Source: a virus. From it: 59,109 nt of DNA. How positions within the stretch are numbered: position 1 is the first letter of the stretch; each line of letters starts with the position of its first letter. The DNA is taken from IMG/VR virus record IMGVR_UViG_3300032246_000466, positions 1-59,109 of that record, one strand, 5' to 3'. The position numbers were made by a program, and so were the translations under genes. Below are positions 42,057 to 57,785 of the stretch, in pieces. Below the pieces are notes generated by a model. That model saw nothing but the letters and a program-made list of their open reading frames with translations. It was not told the origin of the DNA and did no database searches.

Positions 42057-42058
42057 CA

Positions 42059-43336
42059 ATGCAAGAACCAATCGTAATAGAAAACTTAATTAAACATGGT
42101 AAGCACTTTTGTGTATTGCCCTGGGTTCATTTCCATTCATGGCCCGATGGCAGAGTAATGCCTTGCTGTGTTGCAGATAGCAACATGCCTGTTGCTGATA
42201 TTAAAAACAATGAATCTATTATTCAAATGATGAATAGTGAAGATTTTAAAAAGATACGTGAAAAAATGCTAGTTGATGAACCAGTCGCAGCTTGCAAGCG
42301 TTGCTATGACTTAGAGTTAATGGGCACATGGACTATGCGTCAAAGTCATAATAAGCGTAGAGGACTTGAGTATGTAGACATGATTGCAAAAAATACAGAA
42401 AACGACGGTACGTTAGCTGAGTTTCAAATGAAATATATGGATTTGCGATTTAGTAACATGTGTAATATGAAATGCCGTAGTTGTGGTCCTGGCTGTAGTA
42501 GTCTTTGGTCACAAGAATTTGTAGACGAACGCGGTGTAGACGTATATGAAGAATATTTCAAAACTAGAAAAATTGTAATTAACTCAGCAGAAGAAATGGG
42601 CTTTATGAATAAGCTAAAGCCATATTTGAAAGATGTATTGGAAGTTTATTTTGCAGGTGGCGAAATTATAATCACACCTGAACACTATGAATGTTTAGAT
42701 TATTGGATTGAAAATGGATTAACCGATCAAGTTGAGTTAACATACACTACTAATTTTAGTTCATTAAAATACAAAGACAAAGACTTGATTGGATACTGGA
42801 AGAAGTTCCCTCAACTTAAAGTATGGGCCAGTTTAGATGCATCGGGAGATGTAGCAGAAGCTATACGTAAAGGAACTGATTGGGATCGCATTGTTAAGAA
42901 TATCAAAACATTAAGAGAACAAGTACCTCACGCACAGTTTCAAATCACACCCACTATTAGTATTTGGAATATCTTTGATTTTCATATATTCTTTGATTAT
43001 ATGGTTAGTGAAGGATTAATTGATGACAAAACATCTAGTCCTAGATTTAATTTAGCAACCAATCCATGGTATGCAAATATTATGATATTACCAGTTTTGG
43101 TAAAGAATAGATTAGCTGAAATCTATTTACAATATTCTCATAAATACGAGGGCATCAATCAAGACATAGCAAATGGTTTCAGAATGATTGTGAATAATTT
43201 ACAAGTGGGAAATGAAAACAAAGGTGGAATATTAGAATTTAAAAAGTTCAACGATGAGTTGGATGAATTTAGAAATGAAAAATTAACTGATATTATTCCA
43301 GAATTACAAGAGGTATACGAATGGGCAGAAAGTTAA
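42059..43336 (+). CDS. N-twitch-like radical SAM protein, copy 4 (GGEI variant)
   Basis: A 425-residue paralogue with FCVLPWVHFHSWPDGRVMPC (C18, C36, C37), C79-x2-C82, and the radical SAM cluster C135-x3-C139-x2-C142 in FSNMCNMKCRSCGPGCSSLW. An extra Cys follows four residues after the motif. Its SAM-binding segment reads VYFAGGEIIITPEHY, so the Pro of GGEP is Ile here. That position contacts the SAM amino group region, and the change may alter geometry without abolishing binding. Two bases separate it from copy 3; it overlaps the next gene by 16 bases. Confidence 0.83.
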   Translation: MQEPIVIENLIKHGKHFCVLPWVHFHSWPDGRVMPCCVADSNMPVADIKNNESIIQMMNSEDFKKIREKMLVDEPVAACKRCYDLELMGTWTMRQSHNKRRGLEYVDMIAKNTENDGTLAEFQMKYMDLRFSNMCNMKCRSCGPGCSSLWSQEFVDERGVDVYEEYFKTRKIVINSAEEMGFMNKLKPYLKDVLEVYFAGGEIIITPEHYECLDYWIENGLTDQVELTYTTNFSSLKYKDKDLIGYWKKFPQLKVWASLDASGDVAEAIRKGTDWDRIVKNIKTLREQVPHAQFQITPTISIWNIFDFHIFFDYMVSEGLIDDKTSSPRFNLATNPWYANIMILPVLVKNRLAEIYLQYSHKYEGINQDIANGFRMIVNNLQVGNENKGGILEFKKFNDELDEFRNEKLTDIIPELQEVYEWAES

Positions 43337-44283
43337 TAGCTATTGAGGCTCCTGAGCCATATCTAGCAATTACTTGGCAAGTAAACAATTACTGTAACTT
43401 TAAATGTAGTTATTGTAATCCAGGCAACTGGGGCGGCTCTGATATAAATGACGGAAATACTGACCTGTATATTCGTAACTTAGAAACAATAATCAATCGT
43501 TACAAAGCGGTTGGCTATAAGAATTTTAAATTCTTTTTCAGTGGGGGAGAGCCAACCGCTTGGAGAAACTTTATTCCAATATGTGAGTGGTTATACAATG
43601 AGTTACCGCAAGCTACACTAGCAGTAAACACTAATCTAAGTCGACCATTGAAATGGTGGGAAAAGAATCACTATCTATTTGATGATGTTGTTGCTAGCTT
43701 TCACGTAGAGTTTGCTGACAAACAACGTTATGAAGAAAACAGTATATTCCTGTGCGATAAAGTAAATTACCTAGCTACTAAGATGCTATTGCATGAGGAA
43801 AGATTTTGGGAAGTTGTAGAGTTTGGCAAGCATTTAAAAACAGTAATGCCAAACTACTTTTTAGAATGGACACCACTATTTGATGAGATGAGTGTTAATG
43901 CAGGGCCTTGGACATACAAAGATCCTGCAAAGACCAAGTTTGTTAATGAATGTACCAGTGAACATCATCAATCTAAACCCAAACCAGATAAAAGAACAAA
44001 CTATACAGTTAGCTATAATAAATATGATGATGGTCATACTGAAACATGTAACAGCAATGAAGTAATTGTTGCTGGTAATAACTTCTTTAGTGGTTGGAAA
44101 TGTAACGTAGGTGATGCAATTTTCATTAACCCCACCGGTGAAATGAGTTTAGCAAGTTGTGGCATGGGCGGTGTTGTGGGTCATATATTAAAAGATATCT
44201 CCCGTGCAGGACCTAAACAAATTGTTTGCGCCAAAGAGCATTGCCATTGTGGTACTGACATTATAATTCCTAAATTCTTTTGA
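43321..44283 (+). CDS. Radical SAM protein with C-terminal Cys cluster
   Basis: A 320-residue protein of the more usual layout: C25-x3-C29-x2-C32 close to the N-terminus (WQVNNYCNFKCSYCNPGNWG), then FFFSGGEPTAWRNF, then several C-terminal cysteines (WKCNVGD, LASCGMGG, IVCAKEHCHCG) resembling a SPASM-like auxiliary cluster site, with a sugar-or-peptide-side pattern FINPTGEMSLASC. It lacks the N-terminal twitch region of the four preceding genes, so it is not simply a fifth copy. SPASM-type enzymes act on peptides, alcohols or sugars; the substrate here is unknown. Starts within the preceding gene. Confidence 0.8.
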   Translation: MGRKLIAIEAPEPYLAITWQVNNYCNFKCSYCNPGNWGGSDINDGNTDLYIRNLETIINRYKAVGYKNFKFFFSGGEPTAWRNFIPICEWLYNELPQATLAVNTNLSRPLKWWEKNHYLFDDVVASFHVEFADKQRYEENSIFLCDKVNYLATKMLLHEERFWEVVEFGKHLKTVMPNYFLEWTPLFDEMSVNAGPWTYKDPAKTKFVNECTSEHHQSKPKPDKRTNYTVSYNKYDDGHTETCNSNEVIVAGNNFFSGWKCNVGDAIFINPTGEMSLASCGMGGVVGHILKDISRAGPKQIVCAKEHCHCGTDIIIPKFF

Positions 44284-44288
44284 GACAT

Positions 44289-45614
44289 ATGATTGATAAA
44301 AAAATAAAAATAGTTTATAATTGGATAGGTCCCAATGGGCCTATCACGAACGCTGAACTACCAAGTATATTAGCATTTGCCGGGGTTACACCCGGAGCAC
44401 ACACCGACTCTCATAAATTTTGGGGAGAGGGATTGTGGCATTCGTTTTTTAGAAATAATCCTGAATTTGAAATGTCACCGGCTTGGACAATAGACTCGTC
44501 CGACAAATTTATATACCCGATGACGTTGAATTGCAGAACACCTTTTTCTTCATATTTTCAAATCAATGATGGATTATTAGAATGGGCACATGTTTTACCT
44601 TCTATAATACATCATATTCGTCACTGCGGTGGTTATTTTTTAATTGATATAAGTGTAGAGGCATGGGTAGAGGATTCACAATTATTAATGATTCATTCAT
44701 ATTTTAATCATCTTAAGATTCCTCTCAACAAAATAATATATTTGACCGGATGCATGAATCCTGATGAGATATATTCAGCTTTTTGTCAGCGACATTCTAT
44801 TCCAAACTCCCTTGAATGTAGAATTAATTTAGTTCCGTTTCCAATCTCACAAAATTTTATTTCAAGATCAATTCAAATAGAAGAAAAAGACAATATACCG
44901 GCAATTGTTTATAACACTAAATATATTCCTAGTAAAACATTTTTGTCTTGGAATAGGAGACATAGAACACATAGATCAATACTTGCTGTTATGCTGCATA
45001 AGGAAGGGCTTTTGCCTAAAAGTTATTTGAGTATGCTTACAGTTGATCCTGACATGGGAATTGATAATTTTATAACTTCATTTCCACGTAATATAGGAAC
45101 AATATTTGAAATCAATGAGTATGATATTCAACAATTTAATTCACTGCTTCCTTTAGTAATAGACGGAGAAACTGAAATAAACAAAATGTGCGGTGATGTA
45201 GAAAACAAAACACGTAATTTCTATGCTGATAGTCTACTGAGTATTATTACTGAAACAAACTTTGAGAGCCGAGTATTAACTCTTACTGAAAAGTCATTCA
45301 AGCAGTTCAAACAAAAACACCCATTTATTCTAGTAGCACCGGCACATTCTTTGGTTGCATTACGTAATTTAGGGTTTAAGACATTTGGTGAATTTTGGAG
45401 CGAAGAATATGATAATATGGTAGACTCTAACCGACGTTTAGAGGAAATCATACGACTTTGCAAAGAAATTGCTCAATGGGATAATGCAAAAATTATTGAC
45501 TTTAGACAAAAGGCTAAATATATTGTGGAACATAACTACAATCAAGTAAAAATAAGTTCGGCAATATCCGCAACTAATAACATTATTAATCTAATAAGAA
45601 AGAATACACTATGA
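44289..45614 (+). CDS. EK(T/S)-motif glycosyltransferase-like protein, copy 1
   Basis: A 441-residue protein; ATG at 44289 is preferred over a TTG at 44280. The C-terminal half has SWNRRHRTHR, then a signature stretch SLLSIITETNFES, LTEKSFKQFKQKHPFILV and LGFKTFGEFWSEEYD. Two genes downstream (46580 and 48500) share this E(T/S)-x(n)-EK(T/S)(F/L/Y)K plus (R/H)PFI pattern. It resembles the donor-binding half of GT-B enzymes, where a similar E-K pair is found (GT10/GT47-like), so a glycosyltransferase role is likely but not proved. The N-terminal half is unique. Ends with an ATGA overlap into the epimerase. Confidence 0.55.
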   Translation: MIDKKIKIVYNWIGPNGPITNAELPSILAFAGVTPGAHTDSHKFWGEGLWHSFFRNNPEFEMSPAWTIDSSDKFIYPMTLNCRTPFSSYFQINDGLLEWAHVLPSIIHHIRHCGGYFLIDISVEAWVEDSQLLMIHSYFNHLKIPLNKIIYLTGCMNPDEIYSAFCQRHSIPNSLECRINLVPFPISQNFISRSIQIEEKDNIPAIVYNTKYIPSKTFLSWNRRHRTHRSILAVMLHKEGLLPKSYLSMLTVDPDMGIDNFITSFPRNIGTIFEINEYDIQQFNSLLPLVIDGETEINKMCGDVENKTRNFYADSLLSIITETNFESRVLTLTEKSFKQFKQKHPFILVAPAHSLVALRNLGFKTFGEFWSEEYDNMVDSNRRLEEIIRLCKEIAQWDNAKIIDFRQKAKYIVEHNYNQVKISSAISATNNIINLIRKNTL

Positions 45615-46564
45615 AAAAAATATTAGTATGTGGTGCAGGTGGATTTATTGGAACCCACTTAGTAAAAAGTTTAAAGAAACAAGGTCACCGTGTAATTGGT
45701 GCGGATTTGCATTATCCGTTATACAGCGAAACAGTGGCAGATGAATTTTACATTATGGATTTGCGTGAACAACATAATGTTGAACAATTAGTAACAAGTG
45801 ATATTGACGAAATATATCAACTTGCCGCTGATATGGGAGGAGCTGGTTATATATTTACCGGAGAGCATGATGCTGATATAATGCACAACTCTGCAATGAT
45901 TAATTTGAACATATTAGATATGATGCATAAGAAGGGTGTAAAGAATGTATTCTACAGTTCTAGTGCATGTATCTACCCGTCGTTCAACCAAGAAGATCCT
46001 GATAACCCATTGTGTATTGAAGACTCGGCATACCCAGCTAATCCGGATAGTGAATACGGATGGGAAAAATTATTTAGTGAGAGATTATACAGGTCTTACG
46101 CACGTAATCATGGCATCCGTGCTAGGATTGCTAGATTTCATAATATCTTTGGTCCCGAAGGTTCATGGAATAACGGAAAAGAAAAAGCACCTGCGGCACT
46201 GTGTCGCAAAGTTGTCATGTGTGAGGATAATGGTATTGTAGACATATGGGGTCCCGGTAATCAAACTCGCAGCTTTCTTTTTATTGATGAATGTATTGAA
46301 GGAATACACAAGATCATGGCTAGTGAATGTGACTTACCTGTTAATCTAGGAAGCGAACGCATGATTAGCATTAACAATTTGGCACTTTTAATTGCCAAAC
46401 TTACAAATAAAAATATAACAATAAAAAATATAGACGGTCCAATAGGAGTTATGGGACGTAATAGTGACAATACACTATTAAAAGGAATTGTCGGTTGGTC
46501 CCCTGACGAAAACTTAGAATATGGATTATTAAAAACTTTGACTTGGATTAAGTCACAATTATAA
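45611..46564 (+). CDS. GDP-mannose 3,5-epimerase-like NAD-dependent epimerase
   Basis: A 317-residue short-chain dehydrogenase/reductase-type epimerase. GAGGFIG (residues 8-14) binds NAD. AADMGGAGYI (72-81), SSACIYP with C120, Y149-G-W-E-K153, and K192 in GKEKAPAA are the signature of GDP-mannose 3,5-epimerase. The spacings C120, Y149, K153 and K192 equal those recalled for the plant enzyme (C145, Y174, K178, K217). That enzyme turns GDP-mannose into GDP-L-galactose, with a keto intermediate and double epimerisation. GNQTRSFLFIDECIEG and GRNSDNTL complete the family pattern. Related epimerases (GDP-fucose or UDP-sugar) are less likely. It supplies an unusual sugar nucleotide for the neighbouring glycosyltransferases. 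Confidence 0.88.
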   Translation: MKKILVCGAGGFIGTHLVKSLKKQGHRVIGADLHYPLYSETVADEFYIMDLREQHNVEQLVTSDIDEIYQLAADMGGAGYIFTGEHDADIMHNSAMINLNILDMMHKKGVKNVFYSSSACIYPSFNQEDPDNPLCIEDSAYPANPDSEYGWEKLFSERLYRSYARNHGIRARIARFHNIFGPEGSWNNGKEKAPAALCRKVVMCEDNGIVDIWGPGNQTRSFLFIDECIEGIHKIMASECDLPVNLGSERMISINNLALLIAKLTNKNITIKNIDGPIGVMGRNSDNTLLKGIVGWSPDENLEYGLLKTLTWIKSQL

Positions 46565-46579
46565 ATTAATAGTGAGAGT

Positions 46580-47632
46580 ATGACAAGTATATACCTAGTT
46601 GAAGAAAAAGGTTTACATAATGATTATTCACCAATCGTGAATGAAATTATTAGCATCAACCCTGATAAAATAATTTGTTTATGTATGAATGAAGTTGATG
46701 CTCAACTAATATTCAGAACTTTTTTTGATAAAATAAAACCTTGGTTAAAAAATAATAATAAAATTATTAATCTTGTAGTACCTCACCTTAATAATATATT
46801 TATTGAAGAAGGTATCAAAGCAGAGAGAACATATGGTTATATATTACGACATTTTTTAAATAATTATTCTTTTGAAGAACTGTTGCCGTCGGTACTTCCA
46901 CCGCAGTATATGCATTTACATAATACAACTAATTTATTATATACTTGCTACAATCGTAGGAATGAGGTAGCACGAGCAATGTTAGTAGATGCACTAGTAA
47001 GAGAAAATATATTGCATTATGGAATTGTTACTTACCATGAACCAATTGATGCTACATGGAAATACCACAATGGAGCAAGGTTAATGGATGAACCCGATTA
47101 TGAATATCATCAGTTTGACCCACGGTATACTCCAAGCAAGAGCCCGGCCAGTATGATGCGTGGGTTTTTTGATATAGTTACTGAATCTAGATTTAGCCCC
47201 GGTGAATATTTTATTACTGAAAAGACATTAAAAAGTATTATGTTTTTGCGACCATTCATTGCATTTAGCAGCACTGGGTACAACACTGAATATCTTGCAA
47301 AGTATATTGGATTAGAATTATATGATGAAATGTTTAATTATGATTTTGATAGTTGTGACTCACTGGAAGAGCGTGTTGATGGAATTATAAACAATGTAAT
47401 AACACTAAAAAATAAAATACCAGATACTGCTACTAAACATAGTATGTACAAGAAACTTATACCAAAGTTAATTAGAAATAGAAATAAGATAGTGGATATC
47501 TTTTTTGACAAGACAAGAATAGTACCTGATTGTTTACAGATACTAATGTCTGGTGAAAACTACACCCTACACGGGTGTACTAATCACTTCTTACTAGACC
47601 ATATGCGAAAAATGGAATGGATAACAGAATGA
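46580..47632 (+). CDS. EK(T/S)-motif glycosyltransferase-like protein, copy 2
   Basis: A 350-residue protein with LLYTCYNRRNEVARAMLVDA, then a glutamate-lysine block in DIVTESRFSPGEYFITEKTL followed by KSIMFLRPFIAFSSTGY. That is the same arrangement as at 44289 and 48500. The C-terminal part has an IPKLIRNRNKIVDIFF helix. I infer a glycosyltransferase-type donor site. It follows the epimerase after 15 bases and overlaps the SGNH gene (ATGA). Confidence 0.55.
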   Translation: MTSIYLVEEKGLHNDYSPIVNEIISINPDKIICLCMNEVDAQLIFRTFFDKIKPWLKNNNKIINLVVPHLNNIFIEEGIKAERTYGYILRHFLNNYSFEELLPSVLPPQYMHLHNTTNLLYTCYNRRNEVARAMLVDALVRENILHYGIVTYHEPIDATWKYHNGARLMDEPDYEYHQFDPRYTPSKSPASMMRGFFDIVTESRFSPGEYFITEKTLKSIMFLRPFIAFSSTGYNTEYLAKYIGLELYDEMFNYDFDSCDSLEERVDGIINNVITLKNKIPDTATKHSMYKKLIPKLIRNRNKIVDIFFDKTRIVPDCLQILMSGENYTLHGCTNHFLLDHMRKMEWITE

Positions 47633-48498
47633 AAAAATATTTAATTGGATTAGGCTGTAGTTGGACACAGGGTGAGGGTGGTTACCCAGATCAGGTGTGG
47701 AAAGATCACGGCGGGAGAGTACAAGTAAGAGGACGTGATGATTACTATTTACGTGCTATTGAACATGAAAATAGTTGGGTGAATGTATTGACCCGAGATT
47801 ATTTTCCAGAATATGAATCTGTTAATTTAGGAGTACGTGGCATAGGGAACCGAGCAGCAGTTCATCAATTACATTTTTGTGATAAAGTAGATTTTGAAAA
47901 TAGCACAGGTATTATAGTATTAATGTTAAGTGGGTTTGAACGTTTTGATTTCTTTCAAGAAAATCCAAAACGTTTTACAAACCAAGATGACGGTTATAGT
48001 AACGGTGAATACGCACATTACAAATGGAGAACGATGTGGCCCTTTACTGGTAATACTGGAACTGATGCCCCATTATGGGATGCTTATGCTAAGTTATTAT
48101 GGAGTGAACAGTTTATCGCATCAGAACAAATGATGGCATTGATAGACCTACAGACATTTGCAAAAGCATACGGATATAAAGTAGTAGTTGCTAATGCATT
48201 CAATCAACGATTTGAAGGGATAAAACAATATTTTGAAAATAATGTAGGTAGTTTAGTAAACAAGTTTGATTGGTCAACTTATGTACATAATAAAACCCCG
48301 TATGTCGCATTCGTGCAAAAGTTAGTTGAATTAGACGGATTATTAGATCCAAAAGATTGGGGAGCCTTTCACTCACTCTATCATAAAAGAGATTATCCTG
48401 CAACATACTTAACCAATTGTGAGGGAGCCCACCCAACACTTGCTGGCTATAAAGTCATTGCTGATGAGTTGGCTAAATTTATTAATACTCAATTGTGA
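47629..48498 (+). CDS. SGNH-hydrolase-like protein, copy 1
   Basis: The start at 47629 gives an ATGA overlap; an in-frame ATG at 47617 would add MDNR. The first strand ends LGCSWTQGEG with Ser11 in the block I position. NLGVRGIGN supplies a block II-III Gly/Asn, LSGFERFD a conserved turn, and NCEGAHPTLAGYKVIAD a block V-like E265-x2-H268, where the family usually has D-x2-H. 289 residues, no signal peptide. SGNH enzymes are esterases or acyltransferases, often acting on sugar acetyl groups. Activity on a glycan made by neighbouring enzymes is an inference. Confidence 0.75.
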   Translation: MKKYLIGLGCSWTQGEGGYPDQVWKDHGGRVQVRGRDDYYLRAIEHENSWVNVLTRDYFPEYESVNLGVRGIGNRAAVHQLHFCDKVDFENSTGIIVLMLSGFERFDFFQENPKRFTNQDDGYSNGEYAHYKWRTMWPFTGNTGTDAPLWDAYAKLLWSEQFIASEQMMALIDLQTFAKAYGYKVVVANAFNQRFEGIKQYFENNVGSLVNKFDWSTYVHNKTPYVAFVQKLVELDGLLDPKDWGAFHSLYHKRDYPATYLTNCEGAHPTLAGYKVIADELAKFINTQL

Positions 48499-48499
48499 A

Positions 48500-49519
48500 A
48501 TGGCAACTTCTTCTTTTATTGAACATGGTATTGTTGATAATCTAGCAGGATATGAGGTACAGCGTGAAATCTTCAACTTACTTGAAAAACAAATTGACAA
48601 ACATTTTCCTAATCAACAAAATTTTTTAGTTAATACTATCTGGATAGCATTTAATGAAGTTAATCTTTTAGCAGCATATAAGAATTTTGGACATATTGAT
48701 AATATATTTTTTTGTGCGGCACTGGATGAGTGTGGTAATATTCCTCCTCTTCCATCAAATCCTAATTTGAGAGTTTTTCAACTTGGAAATATTGACGAAC
48801 TGGGACAAAATAATTATGAGTTCAGTGCAACAGCTATTACTCTGCATAAGATATTTAAAAAATATAATGATAGCGAACTGTTACTAGACAGTAATAATAC
48901 AGTAGCATATTTGTGCTATCAGAACAAACCGCATGTTCATCGACAGATACTAACTAAAACATTATTAGACAATAAGTTATTAGATAAAGGAATTGTCACA
49001 CTAGGTAAATATAATGATCAAGAATATATGTTTTCAGAATTGGTTAAATTAGAAATTGATGAACCCATTGATGAATATTATTATGGATCTAGGGGACTTA
49101 CTAAAGAAAATCCATACTCTTTGGGTGATATCAATGTTTGGAGAAACTGCTTCCTCAATGTAATATCAGAGTCCTCTTATACCTCACGCCGATTTATTAG
49201 TGAAAAGACATACAAGCCTATCATAGGTATGAGGCCATTTATTCTGAATGGTAACCCCAATATTCTACAATACCTTCAAGAACACGACTTCTACACATTT
49301 GAAGAATATTGGCCAAATGTAAACTTCAGAGAATGTATATCTATGGAAGATACTGCGTCATGTATTGCTACAGTATTACGTGAAGTTTGTAGTAAGTCTC
49401 CAATGGAGATTAGTCTCATGTATAATGAGATGTTACCCAAACTTAGACACAACAGAGAACGATTTTTCCAACATGCAATAGAGCAAGAACATAAACTTAA
49501 TCATTTATTTAACGCATAA
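48500..49519 (+). CDS. EK(T/S)-motif glycosyltransferase-like protein, copy 3
   Basis: The start ATG at 48500 follows the previous stop by one base and gives a 339-residue protein. A start at 48419 would overlap the SGNH gene by 80 bases and is rejected. The key block is VISESSYTSRRFISEKTYKP followed by IIGMRPFILNGNPNILQYL and FYTFEEYWPN, the clearest version of the family motif in this window. N-terminal half: unrecognised. The stop codon lies within a CATAAATA box. Confidence 0.55.
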   Translation: MATSSFIEHGIVDNLAGYEVQREIFNLLEKQIDKHFPNQQNFLVNTIWIAFNEVNLLAAYKNFGHIDNIFFCAALDECGNIPPLPSNPNLRVFQLGNIDELGQNNYEFSATAITLHKIFKKYNDSELLLDSNNTVAYLCYQNKPHVHRQILTKTLLDNKLLDKGIVTLGKYNDQEYMFSELVKLEIDEPIDEYYYGSRGLTKENPYSLGDINVWRNCFLNVISESSYTSRRFISEKTYKPIIGMRPFILNGNPNILQYLQEHDFYTFEEYWPNVNFRECISMEDTASCIATVLREVCSKSPMEISLMYNEMLPKLRHNRERFFQHAIEQEHKLNHLFNA

Positions 49520-49522
49520 ATA
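49515..49522 (+). promoter_or_regulatory. Promoter-like box CATAAATA
   Basis: CATAAATA overlaps the TAA stop of the preceding gene and ends 5 bases before the next ATG. It fits NATAAATA, but a start so close would leave no leader for that gene. It could instead serve genes further down, or be a chance match in AT-rich DNA. Confidence 0.25.
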
Positions 49523-49527
49523 AATGT

Positions 49528-50391
49528 ATGACAGTAAAAAAGATTATTACTTGTGGATGTAGCTTTTCAGATGCCCCATGGGCTTGGAATGTACAGTTAG
49601 AAAATTATTTTACTGGGATAGAGTTTGAAAATCTTGGGATGAGTAGTCAAGGTAATGAGCTAATACAGAAAAAAACAAGCCTTGCAGTAATTGAGTCTTT
49701 AGAAAAATACAAGCCAGAAGAAATTATTGTACTGGTAATGTGGAGCGGCACCGAAAGAAAAACATTTTACATCAATAATCCAGATATTATTAATGATGCA
49801 AAAAATAAAGGATTTCAAATTTGTGGCAAACAACTTGCAGATTTAAAAAACAATATTACACATAAAGAACAGATCACAGAGGCAAACGGCGTAACAGAAT
49901 TTAATAAATTGGGAGGATGGTTTAATACAAACTTTCTATATCAAGGAATAAATTTAACAAAAGAATATTTTAACAGCACAGTTGATATCATCAATGCAGT
50001 GCATATTACTATAGAAAATATTATCATGCTTCAACATATCTGCAAATTACATAACGTAAAATTCTATCAACAATTTTATAGAAGTTATGTCTATGAAGAT
50101 ATATTAAATAACCAAAATAATCAAATGATTAATTATCTGTACAAACAACTAGATCATTCTACAATAATATCAACAACTGGAATTTTTGAATATTTGCGAG
50201 ATTCAATTGAACGCAAGCCTGCAACTAACAAATGGGAACATATTATGAATTTTGTGTTTAATGATACCTCAAGCAGTTCTGACAAGTATTTTAATAGTCG
50301 TGAAGATGTTCACCCTAACCAATTAGGACATAATAAGTGGTTAACTGAAGTTATTATTCCAAGATTGACCTCGGATAATTTTTTAAAATAA
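49528..50391 (+). CDS. SGNH-hydrolase-like protein, copy 2
   Basis: In this 287-residue protein, IITCGCSFSDAPWAW carries the nucleophile candidate Ser12, FENLGMSSQGNELI the block II-III Gly/Asn, VMWSGTERKTFY the W(S/T)xxxR motif shared with the other copies, and SREDVHPNQLGHNKW the C-terminal His block (E-D-V-H). Only the motif spacing and short blocks are shared with copy 1; overall identity is low. It ends TAATG into the B12-type radical SAM gene. Confidence 0.75.
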   Translation: MTVKKIITCGCSFSDAPWAWNVQLENYFTGIEFENLGMSSQGNELIQKKTSLAVIESLEKYKPEEIIVLVMWSGTERKTFYINNPDIINDAKNKGFQICGKQLADLKNNITHKEQITEANGVTEFNKLGGWFNTNFLYQGINLTKEYFNSTVDIINAVHITIENIIMLQHICKLHNVKFYQQFYRSYVYEDILNNQNNQMINYLYKQLDHSTIISTTGIFEYLRDSIERKPATNKWEHIMNFVFNDTSSSSDKYFNSREDVHPNQLGHNKWLTEVIIPRLTSDNFLK

Positions 50392-52313
50392 TGTATAAAC
50401 TAAGTTTTGTAAATCCAAACTTTCAGCAAGGTCCTAAAGAATTCAACGCATATTATCTTCCGTACAGTGCTGGAATTCTGTGGTCGTATGCCAGTCAGTT
50501 TCCTGAAATATCTGAGAAGTTTGAACTATGTGAATTTATTTGGCGACGAGAAGATTTGGCGGATGCTATCGCCAAAATAGGTGATAGTGACATTATAGGG
50601 TTTAGCACGTACATATGGAACAAAAGTTATAATTACGCATTAGCACGACGGATTAAAGAATTAAATCCTAAGTGTGTGATTATGTTTGGTGGCCCTGAAC
50701 CTCCTATTGAAAAATCTGATATCTTTGAGCGTTATCCTTTTATTGATATCGTAGTCAAGCAAGAAGGTGAAAAAACATTCAAAGATGTTTTGGATCACTT
50801 TGAAACTCGTGATTTTGAAAATGTACCTGGACTATTAGTAAATCATAGCGGTAAAGTATTTACAACGGCTAAACGTGAACGTATTGATGATATAGATGTT
50901 GTGCCTAGTCCGTATTTGACCGGCGTATTTGACAAGCTGATGGCAGAGAATCTCGATGTTGAATGGAACGCTGTACTAGAATCTAATCGCGGATGCCCTT
51001 ATCAATGCACATTTTGTGATTGGGGAAGTTTAACTTACAACAAGGTTAAGAAGTTTTCTCTTTGTAGAGTTACAGATGAATTAGAATGGATGGGTCAACA
51101 TAAGATTGGATTTATAAGTATTGCTGACGCAAACTTTGGAATCTTTCCAGAGCGTGATAATCTAATTGCTGATAAATTGATTGAGATTCAAAAGAATTAT
51201 AACTGTCCTAATGCGTACACAATCAGCTGGGCAAAGAATCAAAAGCAAGAAGTTATTAATATTGTAAAAAAGTTGATTGACAACGGAGCACGACTTGGTT
51301 TAACAGTAAGTGTACAAAGTTTAACTGATAATGTATTAGAGATTATTAAGCGTAAAAATTTAGGGATAAATCAAATTGAAAATATTTTTGAGCAATGTGA
51401 CAAGGAAAACATACCTCTCATCACTGAACTTATATTGGGTTTACCCGGTGAAACATTAACCAGTTGGAAAGAAAACTATTATAGACTTTTTCGTTCTAAC
51501 AACCACACAGGCATAACAACATACAATGCTCAGTTGCTTGAAAATGCTGAGATGAATCTTAGTCAACGTAAAATGTATAAAATTGAAACTGCTATAGTTA
51601 AAGATTACTTATGCGGAGCCAATAACGAACATGAACTTGAAGAAGGTGTTGAAATAGTAAGCGGAACTCGGGATATGCCACATGAAAATTTATTAGAAGC
51701 CATGTTGTTTACTTGGTTTATGAATACGTTTCATATTAATGGGTTGAGTAATATTATAAGTAGATTTGCACACAAATATAGTAATGTTGATTACAAAGAC
51801 TTCTACGATGATTTATACGAATATCTTCTACAAGACCCGTGGTTCTTTAATGAAATGAACGAAACAAAGAACTACTACAAAGAGTGGTTTGCAAATGGTG
51901 TAATTAATCATCCTAAGGTAGGCACCACTGACGTATACGGGATGAATCTTGGACAACGTACTAGTATTAGTATACATACTGACGGTAAATATGATTATGT
52001 ATTTGATTTGTTAGAAACATATTATCGTCAGAAATTTCTCAAACAAGAACAGTACGTCAGTGATTTATTTACCATACAAAAAAATTATTATATACGATAT
52101 GACAAGTTAAAGAGTTATCCTAATTGTGTTACTGTTGATAATAACATATTGGGCTATATACAAACAAATGAACCTCTCTGTGCTACAACTGAATATCTAT
52201 TTGAATGTCAAGAAGATAAGGATATGAGTTTAACAAGATTCTGTGAAAGTTTGTGGTTTGGTAGACGAAGAAATTTTGGTAAAGCAATTGTAACTTATAA
52301 GGTTGTAAGATGA
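50391..52313 (+). CDS. B12-binding-architecture radical SAM protein, copy 1
   Basis: A 640-residue protein. Residues 1-140 look like a cobalamin-binding Rossmann fold (IIGFSTYIWNKSYNYALARR, IMFGGPEPPIEKSDIFERYP, VVKQEGEKTF), but no DxHxxG lower-ligand motif is seen, as in many enzymes of this class. The radical SAM cluster is C202-x3-C206-x2-C209 in SNRGCPYQCTFCDWGSLTY. LGLTVSVQSLTDNVLEIIKR and LILGLPGETLTSW are typical of the TIM-barrel half. The C-terminal ~200 residues are unique. Class members include methyltransferases and ring-forming enzymes; substrate unknown. Confidence 0.82.
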   Translation: MYKLSFVNPNFQQGPKEFNAYYLPYSAGILWSYASQFPEISEKFELCEFIWRREDLADAIAKIGDSDIIGFSTYIWNKSYNYALARRIKELNPKCVIMFGGPEPPIEKSDIFERYPFIDIVVKQEGEKTFKDVLDHFETRDFENVPGLLVNHSGKVFTTAKRERIDDIDVVPSPYLTGVFDKLMAENLDVEWNAVLESNRGCPYQCTFCDWGSLTYNKVKKFSLCRVTDELEWMGQHKIGFISIADANFGIFPERDNLIADKLIEIQKNYNCPNAYTISWAKNQKQEVINIVKKLIDNGARLGLTVSVQSLTDNVLEIIKRKNLGINQIENIFEQCDKENIPLITELILGLPGETLTSWKENYYRLFRSNNHTGITTYNAQLLENAEMNLSQRKMYKIETAIVKDYLCGANNEHELEEGVEIVSGTRDMPHENLLEAMLFTWFMNTFHINGLSNIISRFAHKYSNVDYKDFYDDLYEYLLQDPWFFNEMNETKNYYKEWFANGVINHPKVGTTDVYGMNLGQRTSISIHTDGKYDYVFDLLETYYRQKFLKQEQYVSDLFTIQKNYYIRYDKLKSYPNCVTVDNNILGYIQTNEPLCATTEYLFECQEDKDMSLTRFCESLWFGRRRNFGKAIVTYKVVR

Positions 52314-53164
52314 GTAGGTTGATAGTATCTGGTTGTAGTTTTACTAATTATTTTCATCCAACGTGGGCTTGGTTTTTAAGTAGCGCATATGATGAGACTT
52401 ATAATTACGGTCAAGCAGGCGCCGGTAATGAATACATTTATCATAGTATAGTTGATGCTGATACTGATTTGCACTTAAACAAAGATGACACTGTTGTAAT
52501 TGCTTGGTCTGGGTATTATAGGTTTGATCGTTTTGCTGAATTTGATGAGCGCATAAAATGGGGAACTAAGTGGAAAACTAACGGGGATTGGAGTCATGAT
52601 CCTAAATTTAAGACACTAGAACAATTTGTAAATAATGAAGGATGGATAAGAAAATCAATAAATTACATAGCTTCCACAGCTAGATATTTGAAGTCTAAAA
52701 ATATTAAATATGTATTCACTTCTTTGTATGACTTAAACATAAAATTTGACAATAAGATGCACGCCGATCCTTATATCGTTAAATTATTAGCTGATATAAA
52801 AAATGATAATTTTATATATGCAGAAGGATTATCATCATTCGTTTTTAACTACCGAAAACAAACTAAAAGCGCAGCATATAGTTCTCACCCTAATTTAAGA
52901 GAACACCAATTATTAGCAAGTGGAATTGCAGCTAAGTTAGGAGTAACAATTGACACCCATACTGATTTACAACAATACGATACGTTGATTGACTCATCTA
53001 ATCAAGAAGTTTTTGGTAAAATATTGCCTTTACTTGATACTAAAAATTATGCACGTATTCTAACAACAACCAATCCAGAGTGTTTATCTGCAACTATTGA
53101 AAAATATTACCCTACAACGATGCAAGAATATAAAAAAGTAGCTGGCTCGCTATTGATTAAATAA
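52310..53164 (+). CDS. SGNH-hydrolase-like protein, copy 3
   Basis: In this 284-residue protein, LIVSGCSFTNYFHPTWAWFL holds Ser10, YNYGQAGAGNEYIYHS the Gly/Asn block, IAWSGYYRFDRF the conserved W(S/T)xxxR-like block, and YSSHPNLREHQ the C-terminal His. No acidic residue sits three before that His (Tyr instead), so the catalytic triad may be altered. It overlaps the preceding gene (ATGA) and is followed by the longest gap in the window. Confidence 0.7.
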   Translation: MSRLIVSGCSFTNYFHPTWAWFLSSAYDETYNYGQAGAGNEYIYHSIVDADTDLHLNKDDTVVIAWSGYYRFDRFAEFDERIKWGTKWKTNGDWSHDPKFKTLEQFVNNEGWIRKSINYIASTARYLKSKNIKYVFTSLYDLNIKFDNKMHADPYIVKLLADIKNDNFIYAEGLSSFVFNYRKQTKSAAYSSHPNLREHQLLASGIAAKLGVTIDTHTDLQQYDTLIDSSNQEVFGKILPLLDTKNYARILTTTNPECLSATIEKYYPTTMQEYKKVAGSLLIK

Positions 53165-53226
53165 TCATCATACGCTGTAATTAATTAGGTCATTGTGAAA
53201 CTGTAACAGATAATAAGGAGATAGTT
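53165..53226 (+). promoter_or_regulatory. 62-base gap with strong ribosome-binding site (AAGGAG) before a TTG start
   Basis: The gap is the longest in the window. AAGGAG at 53215-53220 is spaced 6 bases from a TTG at 53227, a near-ideal ribosome site that supports the non-ATG start. A promoter may lie in the AT-rich stretch before it, but no convincing -35/-10 pair or NATAAATA box is seen. No hairpin terminator is visible. Confidence 0.5.
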
Positions 53227-55467
53227 TTGGATTTTAATCTTAAGGGTCTTGCAAGGCAAGATGTTGTTGCCCGAGAAAAGCCCACTGAAGATATATCAGA
53301 TGCTCGCCATCGTAGTATGATGGAAGCAATTGCACCCTATGCGAAAAAAACAGAACAAAAAAATCTTACTCCTGTTTATGTAGATTACAAAACACGTAAA
53401 ACAAAACTTGTATTAGTATTATGCCCTGAATGGAGTCCCTATATGCCTCCATTCAGTCTAGCTAGACTTAGTGGTATAGCAAAGAGTTCAGGATATGAAA
53501 CTCATATCATGGATTTGAATGTAAAAGCATACAACGAATATAGAACTGACTGGCAGCCTAACAATAAATTACCATTTAGATTATGGGATCCTAGCAGTAG
53601 CTGGCATTGGTTAGGGGACACGTACATGAACGACATTCATCCTGTACTGGAACCTATACTTAGTAAAGCAGTAGATGATATTGTTGCATTGAACCCTGAA
53701 GTTGTGGGTTTTAGTATCTATTATATTAGTGAAGAACCCAGTAAATGGATGTGCCGTGAATTGAAGCGTAGGCTTCCTAACATAAAGATTGCAGTGGGAG
53801 GACCCAACGTACACAAGAGTTGGTTTAAAACTGAACCTTACTATGACTATGTTGTAGTCGGTGAAGGTGAAGCAAACTTATTAGTATTGCTTGATGAAGT
53901 TGAAGCTGGTATTACTCATGCTGAACCAAAGATATTAGATCAACCCGAAGATCAACGTATTAACATCAACGGCTTACCTATGCCAGATTATGAATCTATT
54001 GATTTTAGTCAATATGAACTACCAAATGGTGTTAATACTGAAATAAGTCGTGGCTGTACTGCTAAGTGTACGTTCTGCGAAGAAACACATTTTTGGAAAT
54101 ATCGTCAACGACAAGCTGTTGACTTGATTGACGAAATTGAATGGCTATATTACAACAAGGGCACTGATGTAGTTTGGTTCATTGATAGTCTAGTGAACGG
54201 TAACTTAAAAGAACTACGTGCATTCGTTAAGGGTGTTGCTGCTAAAGACTTGAAGATCAAGTGGACAGGTTATGCACGATGCGACGGACGCATGGACTTA
54301 GAATACTATAAAGACCTAGCCGCCGGTGGTTGTATTATGTTTAACTATGGCATTGAGTCTGGTAGTCAAAAAGTATTAGATGATATGGCAAAGGGTGTTA
54401 CTATTGCTGAGATGGAACAGAACTTCATTGACGGTAAGAAAGTAGGTATCTGGGCAGCAACTAACTGGATAGTTGGATTCCCTACAGAAGATTTTCAAGA
54501 CTATGCTGATAGTATGACATTGTTATGGCGTATGCGTAACAACAATATCAACAACGCAGGTCTTGGCGTAGGCTATGGATTAGGTCCAGAAACTATTGTA
54601 GGACAGAATCCGCACAAGTTTAATATCAGTTGGCACAAATATCAAGGGCATTGGATTAGTAATGACTTTAAGATAGGTGGCACACATGTTATGACACGGG
54701 TCAAAACATTTCATATGTTTGCAGACTTCTTACAGGGATGCACTGAAGTACCTGTTGGATATCCCGTACGTGATAGTTTAGCCAAAGATCATTACAAAAT
54801 TGAACTGAATGATCCTACAAATATTAAAGAGATTGAGTACGAAAAGTTTGATTACAATATAATCAAGGCAGATATCAATCCATTTGCTGACACACTAGTG
54901 AATGAAATGTGGCCTTTCTTTAGAATGTTATGGAAAACACGCGGTGGATACAAAGCCGAAGTAAAATTTAATCCCGAGATAGACTTGAAAGAGTTTGGTA
55001 GTCAGTTTGGTCCCGGTATGTATTATGCAACGTATAAGTTTAATATAACAGATGACGGTAAATGGGACGCAGACTTTGATATCATTTTTAATCAAGTTGA
55101 CAACAACTTTGACGATAGAGAACCTCCACCTTTGGGACGTAAGGGTCCATTCTATGCACAGGATTATAGTAGACTACAAAGTAATACTACAAAACGTGCT
55201 AGAAAGTTAGCAAAGCCTACATGGGACGATCAAGAAGGTCGTAGTGGCCAAGACTTTGCTGATTTACTAAATGAAGAGGAACTATTAAACAAAACTATTG
55301 ACTTTTCATTTAAATTACACTGGGTTGAATCAGGTGATTGGGGTAATTATAGTGACTACGAAGTGCAAGTTTCTGATATTACAAATGTTGTTATACCCGA
55401 AAAAGAATCAATGTCAAAGCAAGAAGTTGTTACAATTGACGTAGCCGCTATTACAAAACGCAGGTAA
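53227..55467 (+). CDS. B12-binding-architecture radical SAM protein, copy 2
   Basis: A 746-residue protein with a TTG start chosen for the AAGGAG 6 bases upstream. Residues 60-215: LVLVLCPEWSPYMPPFSLAR, HIMDLNVKAYN, VVGFSIYYISEEPSKW and IAVGGPNVHKSW fit the cobalamin-binding fold. C277-x3-C281-x2-C284 lies in ISRGCTAKCTFCEETHFWKY, followed by FIDSLVNGN and FNYGIESGSQKVLDDMAKGV (radical SAM barrel). It shares architecture rather than close sequence with the gene at 50391. The C-terminal ~200 residues are Asp/Lys-rich and unique. Codon use and overlap pattern are like its neighbours. Confidence 0.83.
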   Translation: MDFNLKGLARQDVVAREKPTEDISDARHRSMMEAIAPYAKKTEQKNLTPVYVDYKTRKTKLVLVLCPEWSPYMPPFSLARLSGIAKSSGYETHIMDLNVKAYNEYRTDWQPNNKLPFRLWDPSSSWHWLGDTYMNDIHPVLEPILSKAVDDIVALNPEVVGFSIYYISEEPSKWMCRELKRRLPNIKIAVGGPNVHKSWFKTEPYYDYVVVGEGEANLLVLLDEVEAGITHAEPKILDQPEDQRININGLPMPDYESIDFSQYELPNGVNTEISRGCTAKCTFCEETHFWKYRQRQAVDLIDEIEWLYYNKGTDVVWFIDSLVNGNLKELRAFVKGVAAKDLKIKWTGYARCDGRMDLEYYKDLAAGGCIMFNYGIESGSQKVLDDMAKGVTIAEMEQNFIDGKKVGIWAATNWIVGFPTEDFQDYADSMTLLWRMRNNNINNAGLGVGYGLGPETIVGQNPHKFNISWHKYQGHWISNDFKIGGTHVMTRVKTFHMFADFLQGCTEVPVGYPVRDSLAKDHYKIELNDPTNIKEIEYEKFDYNIIKADINPFADTLVNEMWPFFRMLWKTRGGYKAEVKFNPEIDLKEFGSQFGPGMYYATYKFNITDDGKWDADFDIIFNQVDNNFDDREPPPLGRKGPFYAQDYSRLQSNTTKRARKLAKPTWDDQEGRSGQDFADLLNEEELLNKTIDFSFKLHWVESGDWGNYSDYEVQVSDITNVVIPEKESMSKQEVVTIDVAAITKRR

Positions 55468-55469
55468 AA

Positions 55470-56231
55470 ATGAAAGAGAAAATAATGTTAATTGCCGGAT
55501 GCAGTCATGCGTCTGGTTCAGAAATTGATGGAAATCAAGACTCAACGTATAATAGACAGAACTCATTTGGTAATATTTTAGCAACTAAGTTAGGATATAA
55601 ACCAATTAATATGGCAGAGCCCGGTTCTACCAATCCAACAATTGCAAGAAGCATTTTACAATGGTTTAGTGAGAAATACCATGCTGAAACTATGAAAGTT
55701 TTTGTATTAGTTAGTTGGACTGATAGTACTAGAATGGAAGTTCCTTGGCATAGAAAAACGTGGTTTGGAGACCACAATCCTTTTAATGATTATCATGCTA
55801 GCACCGGTGTAGATTTTAATCGTATCAATTTGGGATGGCCCGGGGGTGATGCAGAAGAAAAGATGTTTATTGCGGAGTATCATAAATTTATAGCTAAGAA
55901 TGAAAAGTATTTGGAAATAGCAAGTGCTAATTCGGTACTACAATTACAATACTTTTTTAAGTCAAAAAATATAGAATATTTAATGTGCAATGCATCATAT
56001 ATGTTTCAACCTCGAGATACATATACCAATTTTTACTTAGACCAAATTGACAACACTAAATATTATGATATGGAAGATAATGAAAAGTCTTTCTATGTGA
56101 AATACAAAAATGCCGGATATACTAATCCAAAAGCAAAGTATTGGCATCATAATGAAACTCCTCATGCATTATATGCCGACGAGTTATATAATTTTATAGG
56201 AGAAAATAATGTTCTTAGTAAGATGGTTTAA
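55470..56231 (+). CDS. SGNH-hydrolase-like protein, copy 4
   Basis: A 253-residue protein with LIAGCSHASGSEIDGN (candidate Ser12), INMAEPGSTNPTIARS (Gly/Asn block), VLVSWTDSTRMEVPW (W(S/T)xxxR block) and NETPHALYADELYNFI (E-x2-H). It is the shortest copy. Start ATG is 2 bases after the previous stop; the end overlaps the 32-codon gene by 23 bases. Confidence 0.72.
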   Translation: MKEKIMLIAGCSHASGSEIDGNQDSTYNRQNSFGNILATKLGYKPINMAEPGSTNPTIARSILQWFSEKYHAETMKVFVLVSWTDSTRMEVPWHRKTWFGDHNPFNDYHASTGVDFNRINLGWPGGDAEEKMFIAEYHKFIAKNEKYLEIASANSVLQLQYFFKSKNIEYLMCNASYMFQPRDTYTNFYLDQIDNTKYYDMEDNEKSFYVKYKNAGYTNPKAKYWHHNETPHALYADELYNFIGENNVLSKMV

Positions 56232-56307
56232 TTATTTAGTAAGAGAATATAAGTACCGTAAACGTATCAAAGAATTACGTAAAAGAGACCCCTTCATTTA
56301 CAAATGA
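56209..56307 (+). CDS. 32-residue Arg/Lys-rich protein before the carbamoyltransferase
   Basis: An ATG at 56209 with TAGGAG six bases upstream opens a 32-codon frame ending TGA at 56305-56307, in ATGA overlap with the next gene. The product has an aromatic start (MFLVRWFNYLVREYKYRKRI), then KELRKRDPFIYK. An amphipathic basic helix is likely. I recall small proteins ending RKRDPFIYK in cyanophages. The ribosome site and coupled stop/start are strong evidence that it is translated. It may bind membrane, RNA or its partner enzyme; function unknown. Confidence 0.72.
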   Translation: MFLVRWFNYLVREYKYRKRIKELRKRDPFIYK

Positions 56308-57785
56308 ATTACATAGGTATAAGTGCTGGTTTCCATGATGCTGCAATAAGTGTAGTAGATGGCCATGGCAACATATTGTTTGCTGGTCATAGTGAGCGTT
56401 ATAGTAAAAACAAGCACGACAAAGATGTATGCAAAGAATTGTTGTTAGATGCATATAACCATACTAACTCTCCCTACTTACAGTATCATTACTATGAACG
56501 TCCATGGTTAAAATCATTACGCCAACTACGCACTGGTGAGGGCTTTAGTTGGCCGTCTTGGGAAAAGATATTAGGTTCTACCTATCATCAGATGGGTACT
56601 CCAAAGATTCATACACACGGGCATCATCTATGTCATGCAGCAGCCGGGTTCCAAACAAGTCCATTTGAAGATGCTACAGTCGTAGTAATTGATGCTATAG
56701 GTGAGTTTGATACAGTTACTATATGGGATGCATGGTATGATTTCTCGTCAGGTAAAGCAGAATATCAAAAATTATGGAGTATGCGATATCCAGATAGTAT
56801 TGGATTATTCTATTCAGCAATGACTGAACGAGTTGGACTACGCCCACTTGACGAAGAATACATTCTCATGGGCATGGCAGCGTATGGAGAACCAGTTCAC
56901 CTTCAAGAAATGATTACTGAGTTTGTAGATAGTAAAGATATATTTACGTTTAAGCAAAATCTACATACTGGTGTTAGTAAAGATTTCTTAAAAGACGCTA
57001 ATCCAATGGACATTGCTAGCAGCAGTCAACACTTAGTTGAGTATATGATTACTAGAGTAATGAGCAAAGCTAGAACACTGGGTCGTAGTAGAAATTTAGT
57101 ATATGGTGGTGGTGTAGCATTGAATTGTTTAGCAAATAGACTATTGGGAAACTTCTATGAAAATATTTGGATTATGCCTAATCCCGGTGATGCGGGTAAT
57201 AGTCTTGGTGCAGCGTGTCTTGGGTATGGTGCTAAAACTAATTGGACTGATGCTTTTCTTGGCCATAATATTAGTGGCAAGTATCCTGTTAACAACATAC
57301 TTGATGTGTTACTTACTGATCGCATTGTTGGTGTTGCGTCAGGACGAGCAGAGTTTGGCCCGAGAGCGTTGGGAAACCGTAGTCTACTTGCAGATCCAAG
57401 AGGTGATGAAATAAAAGACAAAGTAAATGAAATCAAACGTAGACAAAAGTTTAGACCATTTGCTCCTGTCATATTAGAAGAATATGCTCATCAATATTTT
57501 GATATGCCTAAGCACTGGCATGATAGTAGATATATGCAAGTGATTAGTAAATGTAAGTATCCTGAAAAATTTCCTGCAATTGTACACCATGATTGGACTA
57601 GTCGTGTGCAAACTGTTCCAAAAGATGGTTCTGGAATTAGAGAGTTACTAGAGAAATGGTATGTATTGACTGATTGTCCAATGCTATTAAACACAAGTTT
57701 AAATATTCGCGGTGAACCAATGGTCAATGATAGAGATGATGCAGACAGATTTGAAAAACTATATGGGGTTAAAGTTTTATCATAA
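56304..57785 (+). CDS. NodU-type carbamoyltransferase
   Basis: A 493-residue protein with the carbamoyltransferase (NodU/CmcH) pattern: MNYIGISAGFHDAAISVVDG, H107-H-L-C-H111 metal-site motif, VVVIDAIGEFDTVTIW, then YILMGMAAYGEP, YGGGVALNCLAN, PNPGDAGNSLGAA and VASGRAEFGPRALGNRS. These enzymes use carbamoyl phosphate and ATP to put a carbamoyl group on a sugar or other hydroxyl. The C-terminus (PMLLNTSLNIRGEPMVNDRD) is slightly shorter than in NodU (about 570 residues) but complete at that motif. Its place beside glycosyltransferase-like and epimerase genes suggests a glycan acceptor. Confidence 0.92.
   Translation: MNYIGISAGFHDAAISVVDGHGNILFAGHSERYSKNKHDKDVCKELLLDAYNHTNSPYLQYHYYERPWLKSLRQLRTGEGFSWPSWEKILGSTYHQMGTPKIHTHGHHLCHAAAGFQTSPFEDATVVVIDAIGEFDTVTIWDAWYDFSSGKAEYQKLWSMRYPDSIGLFYSAMTERVGLRPLDEEYILMGMAAYGEPVHLQEMITEFVDSKDIFTFKQNLHTGVSKDFLKDANPMDIASSSQHLVEYMITRVMSKARTLGRSRNLVYGGGVALNCLANRLLGNFYENIWIMPNPGDAGNSLGAACLGYGAKTNWTDAFLGHNISGKYPVNNILDVLLTDRIVGVASGRAEFGPRALGNRSLLADPRGDEIKDKVNEIKRRQKFRPFAPVILEEYAHQYFDMPKHWHDSRYMQVISKCKYPEKFPAIVHHDWTSRVQTVPKDGSGIRELLEKWYVLTDCPMLLNTSLNIRGEPMVNDRDDADRFEKLYGVKVLS

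What the first reader, a model, noticed from the sequence alone, without database searches (positions are those of the whole stretch)
46580..56231. Four consecutive pairs of large enzyme plus SGNH-like protein
From 46.6 to 56.2 kb the order is GT-like/SGNH, GT-like/SGNH, B12-radical SAM/SGNH, B12-radical SAM/SGNH. The four SGNH proteins all have a GCS nucleophile block at residues 10-12, a Gly/Asn block, a W(S/T)xxxR-like block and a C-terminal His block, but little else in common. Such regular alternation suggests each SGNH protein serves as a tailoring partner (acyl carrier-like transfer or deprotection) for the enzyme before it. I know of no described system with this layout.
Basis: partly seen in the sequence, partly recalled or inferred. 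Interest (0 to 1): 0.72.

Follow-up and report, generated by a model that had tools for sequence, protein, structure and literature searches.

The report
SGNH genes in phage sugar island
A stretch of an uncultivated aquatic phage genome carries four distantly related esterase-like proteins among sugar-making and sugar-decorating enzymes; the neat enzyme-esterase pairing seen by eye is real in this sequence but mostly does not hold in relatives, so the genes look like a swappable sugar-tailoring kit rather than four fixed pairs.

Summary
The order is real: GT-B enzyme/SGNH, GT-like/SGNH, B12-radical SAM/SGNH, B12-radical SAM/SGNH, all + strand with touching genes. The four SGNHs share one ancestry (any seed recovers all; hhalign, BLAST), and S4 folds as an SGNH hydrolase (pLDDT 94.5; Z 13.7). 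They fall in four deep clades, so they are not recent duplicates. Fixed pairing mostly fails. S1 persists without GT1, including in a 364-kb record. S2 is missing from the closest relatives. The S3 slot is refilled by different SGNH clades, or S3 sits behind a glycosyltransferase. RB2->S4(->carbamoyltransferase) is conserved, and so is S1->RB1, i.e. SGNH before the enzyme. RB1->SGNH recurs in a second, 7-deazaguanine-type phage lineage. The genes sit in an island with a GDP-mannose 3,5-epimerase, glycosyltransferases, five other radical SAMs and a TobZ/NodU-type carbamoyltransferase. Best reading: a modular glycan-tailoring island in which each SGNH is probably an O-acyl esterase or transferase acting on the shared product. 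A 5-hydroxymethylcytosine route is disfavoured: three related records carry ordinary thymidylate synthase. Substrate and activity are unproven.

The parts
45611..46564 (+). EPI: GDP-mannose 3,5-epimerase (makes GDP-L-galactose/L-gulose)
   Evidence: phmmer 8e-89 to Arabidopsis GME 2c59, next family 2.6e-25
46580..47632 (+). GT1: GT-B fold glycosyltransferase-like, 350 aa
   Evidence: AF2 pLDDT 82.8; VIA Z 11.8 to T4 beta-glucosyltransferase, Z 9-10 to fucosyltransferases and other GT-B; no Foldseek match at E<=0.001; invariant EKT motif
47617..48498 (+). S1: SGNH-family protein, 293 aa
   Evidence: GCS13-15, R109, H272; orthologs 58-72% in 14 loci
48500..49519 (+). GT2: GT1-related protein (ATG at 48500 inferred; ORF opens at 48419)
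   Evidence: aligned with GT1, 20% identity, shared EKT/PF/N motifs
49528..50391 (+). S2: SGNH-family protein, 287 aa; absent from closest relatives
   Evidence: DUF6071 1.3e-5, just under the Pfam cut-off
50391..52313 (+). RB1: B12-binding radical SAM protein, KedN5-like, 640 aa
   Evidence: Pfam B12-binding 5e-11, Radical_SAM 2e-10; NF033712 KedN5 8e-85 but 285 bits vs cut-off 700; CxxxCxxC invariant
52310..53164 (+). S3: SGNH-family protein, 284 aa, with about 90 residues after the conserved His
   Evidence: GCS8-10, H193; more than 600 pattern matches of this type in viral contigs
53227..55467 (+). RB2: B12-binding radical SAM protein, 746 aa (TTG start as listed)
   Evidence: Radical_SAM 2e-14, B12-binding 1e-10; nearest NCBIfam TIGR03975 1.9e-28, under cut-off
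55470..56231 (+). S4: SGNH-family protein, 253 aa
   Evidence: AF2 pLDDT 94.5; VIA Z 13.7 to GDSL lipase Alr1529, Z about 13 to TesA, 12.7 to CE2
56304..57785 (+). CARB: NodU/TobZ-type O-carbamoyltransferase, 493 aa
   Evidence: Pfam Carbam_trans_C 1e-47 and N 9e-37; TobZ and GdmN by phmmer; phrog_1601 1.5e-92
44280..45614 (+). GT0: GT-like protein of the same island
   Evidence: no Pfam hit; BLAST cluster with GT1/GT2
38207..44283 (+). RS1-RS5: five non-B12 radical SAM genes (twitch/SPASM type) of the same island
   Evidence: NF033640 1.8e-92 for RS1; Pfam SPASM/Radical_SAM

Best explanation
The region is part of a modular sugar-tailoring island of an uncultivated large myovirus-type phage, placed after its baseplate and structural genes. 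A GDP-mannose 3,5-epimerase supplies an L-hexose nucleotide sugar, GT-B enzymes transfer sugars, B12-radical SAM enzymes C-methylate (or otherwise radically alter) the product, and a NodU/TobZ-type enzyme carbamoylates it. Each of the four soluble SGNH proteins most likely adds or removes an O-acyl group at a particular position of the same glycan, through a Ser-His active site. They are independent tailoring enzymes of the island, gained, lost and swapped as cassettes, not obligate subunits of the enzyme upstream; RB2-S4 is the one pair that behaves like a stable unit. Shown: homology, SGNH fold (S4), conserved Ser and His, cluster content, adjacency patterns. Inferred: enzymatic activity, the acyl group, that the glycan is on the virion or host surface, and the identity of the B12-rSAM reaction.
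For: SGNH fold and conserved GCS Ser, block II Gly/Asn, Arg and His; nearest folds include carbohydrate esterases CE2 (4xvh, 2w9x, 2wao). Lack of a block V acid at -3 in S3 and S4 has precedent in CE2 Ser-His dyads (PMC9487903). Epimerase is GME; carbamoyltransferase is TobZ/NodU-like; GT1 is GT-B. Reshuffled order with retained gene types across the fetched loci; 3-7 SGNH genes in most of the larger records. In a metagenome survey, carbamoyltransferases in contigs without modified DNA were flanked by genes such as glycosyltransferases, as here (PMC8670742). The cultured Pelagibacter phage Mosig has an SGNH of this family (HMM 3.5e-32) beside an ArnB-like aminotransferase, a MoaA-like rSAM and a carbamoyltransferase.
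Against: No enzyme of the family has been assayed, as far as I found; only S4 was modelled among the SGNHs and the coordinates were not inspected. The position of the catalytic acid differs among subfamilies (E/D at -3 or -2, none at -3 in window S3/S4), so some may be inactive or binding proteins. The second lineage carries RB1-SGNH inside a FolE-QueD-QueE-type operon rather than an obvious glycan island, so the substrate could be something else. GT1's top fold match is a DNA glucosyltransferase, and no Foldseek hit reached E 0.001.
Confidence: 0.58

Rival explanations
1. Each SGNH protein is a dedicated partner of its neighbouring enzyme, at least for the B12-radical SAM enzymes: RB1 with S3 and RB2 with S4 act as two-protein modules, for example methylation followed by deprotection of an acylated intermediate.
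For: RB2->S4 in 12 of 14 non-edge cases; RB1->SGNH in two different phage lineages with RB1 at about 51% identity and S3-type SGNH at 26-34%; the RB1->S slot is filled by more than one SGNH clade, at least 3 label changes forced by well supported branches; ATGA overlap RB1/S3.
Against: RB1 often lacks an adjacent SGNH (downstream SGNH in 17 of 60 distinct loci, GT in 20) and RB1->S enrichment is weak (145/2000 shuffles reach it); S1 usually precedes RB1 instead; RB2 and S4 are separated in L025-L027; bacterial RB1 relatives (about 33-36% identity) have no such SGNH nearby. Gene overlap occurs along the whole island.
Confidence: 0.17
2. The island modifies phage DNA: hydroxymethylated bases are glycosylated, carbamoylated and acylated.
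For: GT1's best structural match is T4 beta-glucosyltransferase (Z 11.8); phage carbamoyltransferases can act on 5-hydroxymethylcytosine (PMC8670742); in a second lineage RB1 and SGNH sit among FolE, QueD and QueE genes.
Against: The three related records with a thymidylate synthase homolog have the canonical GLPFNIASY motif (Asn177), not the Asp of cytosine hydroxymethylases; no second homolog in the 364-kb record; presence of a GDP-mannose 3,5-epimerase and many GTs, position next to structural genes, and high cassette turnover fit glycans better.
Confidence: 0.09
3. The radical SAM and SGNH proteins mature a peptide or protein (RiPP-like), perhaps the Trp-rich repeat protein encoded after the carbamoyltransferase (57794-).
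For: RB2 is nearest to RiPP radical SAM methyltransferase models; SGNH CgnD of crocagin biosynthesis, among the fold matches, cleaves the leader peptide (PMC10885120); CARB is followed by the repeat protein in many loci.
Against: Model scores lie far below curated cut-offs; no precursor peptide or leader was found, nor searched for systematically; GTs and GME dominate the island.
Confidence: 0.1

Closest known systems
SGNH/GDSL hydrolases, carbohydrate esterase family CE2 and TesA
   Same: Fold (Z 12-13.7), Ser in block I, His in block V, dyad-type block V in some members
   Different: No detectable sequence relation beyond a sub-threshold match to 2waa (E 0.88); GCS in place of GDS; no binding module; substrate unknown
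Pfam DUF6071 (PF19547)
   Same: 19 of 27 aligned members match, best 4.6e-12
   Different: Window S1, S3 and S4 do not match on their own, S2 falls just below the cut-off; no function assigned to the family
KedN5 family methylcobalamin-dependent radical SAM C-methyltransferases
   Same: RB1 matches over residues 12-398 at 8e-85 with B12-binding and radical SAM domains
   Different: 285 bits against a cut-off of 700; substrate unknown and neighbourhood differs
Phage glycan/LPS-type gene islands (e.g. Pelagibacter phage Mosig region 54-74 kb)
   Same: Carbamoyltransferase, radical SAM, aminotransferase/epimerase genes and one SGNH of this family near tail genes
   Different: One SGNH rather than four; no KedN5-like RB1 or RB2 seen in the 31-kb stretch read

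Membership tests
SGNH hydrolase superfamily | SGNH alpha/beta/alpha fold | tested here: met
   S4 model pLDDT 94.5; Z 13.7 to 1z8h and many GDSL esterases; S1-S3 by homology only
SGNH hydrolase superfamily | Block I Ser nucleophile and block V His | tested here: met
   G-(C/D)-S and His invariant or nearly so in the aligned set
SGNH hydrolase superfamily | Block V acid three residues before His | tested here: inconclusive
   Present in S1 (EGAH) and S2 (EDVH), absent at -3 in S3 and S4; dyads are known in CE2
SGNH hydrolase superfamily | Hydrolase or acyltransferase activity | not testable with these tools
   needs purified protein
DUF6071 (PF19547) | Pfam match above gathering score | tested here: not met
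   S2 25.5 vs 27 bits; S1, S3, S4 no match; other members match up to 4.6e-12, cut-off not shown for them
KedN5 family (NF033712) | Score above curated cut-off | tested here: not met
   RB1 285.3 vs 700 bits
B12-binding radical SAM proteins | B12-binding domain plus Radical_SAM with CxxxCxxC | tested here: met
   RB1 and RB2 above both Pfam cut-offs; Cys invariant in the RB1 alignment A4
GDP-mannose 3,5-epimerase | Closest solved relatives are GME by a wide margin | tested here: met
   8e-89 to GME vs 2.6e-25 next
NodU/TobZ O-carbamoyltransferases | Carbam_trans_N and Carbam_trans_C domains | tested here: met
   TobZ, GdmN by phmmer
5-hydroxymethylcytosine carbamoylation system | dCMP hydroxymethylase-type thymidylate synthase homolog (Asp at position 177) | tested here: not met
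   Only the Asn177-type found, in three of seven related records searched; the window itself is a fragment and was not tested
GT-B glycosyltransferases | GT-B fold | tested here: met
   GT1 Z 11.8 to T4 BGT over 261 residues, many GT-B below it; Foldseek alone not significant

The most novel reading that the evidence does not exclude
An SGNH protein is a functional accessory of KedN5-like phage B12-radical SAM enzymes: the slot next to RB1 is refilled by SGNHs of different clades in different phage lineages, so methylation and acyl chemistry would be coupled in a virus-specific two-step module used on both glycan and 7-deazaguanine-linked pathways.
Probability: 0.13. Interest if true: 0.75.

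Novelty: new variant of a known kind. Interest (0 to 1): 0.47.

Why it matters
It points to a large, nearly unannotated SGNH family of uncultivated phages (more than 600 pattern hits for one subtype; in the GenBank phage set S1, S2 and S4 queries found nothing and S3 found only Mosig) and ties it to GDP-L-hexose, B12-radical SAM and carbamoylation genes. If the island decorates virions or host surfaces with methylated, acylated and carbamoylated sugars, it predicts testable chemistry and a reason for its fast cassette turnover.

Tried and rejected
Obligate GT1/S1 and GT2/S2 pairs: rejected by gene order in relatives. Recent tandem duplication of the SGNHs: rejected, the four lie in four deep clades (quick tree, SH-aLRT only, long branches present). 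T4-type late promoters as timing evidence: TATAAATA occurs twice against 13.4 expected, and not just before the island genes, so no use. SGNH/RB relatives in annotated phages by tblastn: none for S1, S2 or S4, one for S3 (Mosig), only remote radical SAM hits for RB1 and RB2. Bacterial homes of the RB1-SGNH pair: among the 80 genome loci kept only L194, a 7-kb contig that looks like phage, had an SGNH. Papers on DUF6071 or on SGNH with radical SAM in phages: nothing relevant. Structure of pairs as complexes: no tool. Tandem repeats at DNA level in the repeat protein: none. The two dereplication schemes give different denominators; both are reported.

Full report
What is there. The window is a 59-kb IMG/VR virus record with a T4-type baseplate wedge protein (phrog_10646 6e-256; about 32% to large phages such as Atu_ph07 and CBB). 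After the structural genes runs a long + strand island (35-57.8 kb). GCS positions, the Trp of block III in S1 and the place of the His in S3 differ slightly from the description.

One family, four old branches. HMM searches begun from each of the four SGNH proteins end in the same 56-member set (inclusion E 1e-3, so profile drift is possible), and independent profile comparison links them, strongly through S2 (S2-S3 99%, S2-S4 96%, S1-S4 94%, S1-S2 90%), weakly directly for S1-S3 and S3-S4. Invariant or near-invariant columns are Gly-Cys-Ser, an Asn and Gly of block II, an Arg and a His. AlphaFold2 of S4 is confident (pLDDT 94.5) and matches GDSL esterases, TesA and CE2 carbohydrate esterases (Z 12-13.7; Foldseek E 2e-4). 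The acid three residues before the His is missing in S3 and S4; CE2 enzymes with Ser-His dyads are a known precedent (PMC9487903). In a 141-row tree the four window proteins sit in four different deep clades.

The other members. GT1 has no family match but a GT-B fold, best Z 11.8 to T4 beta-glucosyltransferase, followed by fucosyltransferases and other GT-B enzymes; Foldseek alone is not significant. GT2 aligns with it at 20% and shares its motifs. RB1 and RB2 are B12-binding radical SAM proteins; RB1 is nearest to KedN5-type C-methyltransferases, RB2 to RiPP and BchE-like models, both below curated cut-offs. Upstream lies a GDP-mannose 3,5-epimerase and five twitch/SPASM-type radical SAMs; downstream a NodU/TobZ-type carbamoyltransferase.

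Is the pairing conserved? Loci fetched with S1, S2, S3, S4 and RB1 queries were read for gene order. Among distinct S1 genes the upstream neighbour is the epimerase 10 times and a GT 9 times, while the downstream neighbour is RB1 19 times of 22. A 364-kb record keeps S1-RB1-S3 with only a 28%-identity partial GT1 match elsewhere. S2 is absent from L013, L015 and L016. RB1 lies before 21 of 72 distinct S3-type genes; in other relatives a GT sits between them or precedes S3. S4 follows RB2 in 12 of 14 non-edge cases and precedes CARB in 9. Against shuffled order in 73 non-redundant loci, SGNH->RB1 and GT->SGNH are enriched, RB1->SGNH and SGNH-SGNH are not; shared descent inflates these counts. 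So the alternation in this window is real but largely not a rule.

A second lineage. The S3 scan found more than 600 matches. Many of the 80 kept loci show FolE, QueD, a GT2-like gene, an RB1-type protein (about 51% identity), an S3-type SGNH, QueE, a cytidylyltransferase and another SGNH. In some a methyltransferase-like gene or a GT occupies the RB1 place. These role names come from reading representative sequences, not from a family search. RB1 beside an SGNH thus occurs in two separate phage lineages, and the tree forces at least three changes of the RB1->S state.

What it most likely does. The gene content fits synthesis and decoration of a sugar chain: epimerase, transferases, radical SAM methylation and carbamoylation, with the SGNHs as acyl-adding or acyl-removing enzymes. 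In a published metagenome survey, carbamoyltransferases in contigs without DNA modification were flanked by genes such as glycosyltransferases, as here, whereas DNA-acting ones co-occur with thymidylate synthase homologs (PMC8670742). Three related records carry a thymidylate synthase homolog and all have the Asn177 motif of ordinary thymidylate synthase. This argues against the 5-hydroxymethylcytosine route but does not test the window's own genome, which is a fragment. Activity, acyl group and location of the product are inferred.

Verdict. Observation confirmed; interpretation partly supported (RB2-S4, and RB1 near an SGNH), and not for the two GT pairs. New variant of a known kind.

Noticed in passing
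G001-G006, G015 (records of L118, L124, L162, L009, L012, L173, L186): These phage records carry 8-17 radical SAM domain matches each (17 in a 236-kb record), a bacterial-size repertoire.
   Followed up: partly
57794-59107 (open at the window end); L021, L022, L023, L031: A Trp-rich repeat protein (FDFSWxPDP...YIYxFGTQ-like units, up to about 1470 aa in relatives) follows the carbamoyltransferase in many loci; no Pfam hit, no match in annotated phages.
   Followed up: partly
L039-L113, L174-L191: SGNH and KedN5-like radical SAM genes sit inside FolE/QueD/QueE-type operons of another phage lineage.
   Followed up: partly
L034 11884-12624 (Pelagibacter phage Mosig, Mosig_00086): A 'hypothetical protein' of a cultured phage belongs to this SGNH family (HMM E 3.5e-32).
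   Followed up: partly
L059; L095, L103, L114: Tandem SGNH genes: three in a row in L059, two followed by a carbamoyltransferase in the others.
   Followed up: no
12414-32018: A 6534-aa ORF beside the baseplate genes; its first 1529 residues have no Pfam match.
   Followed up: no
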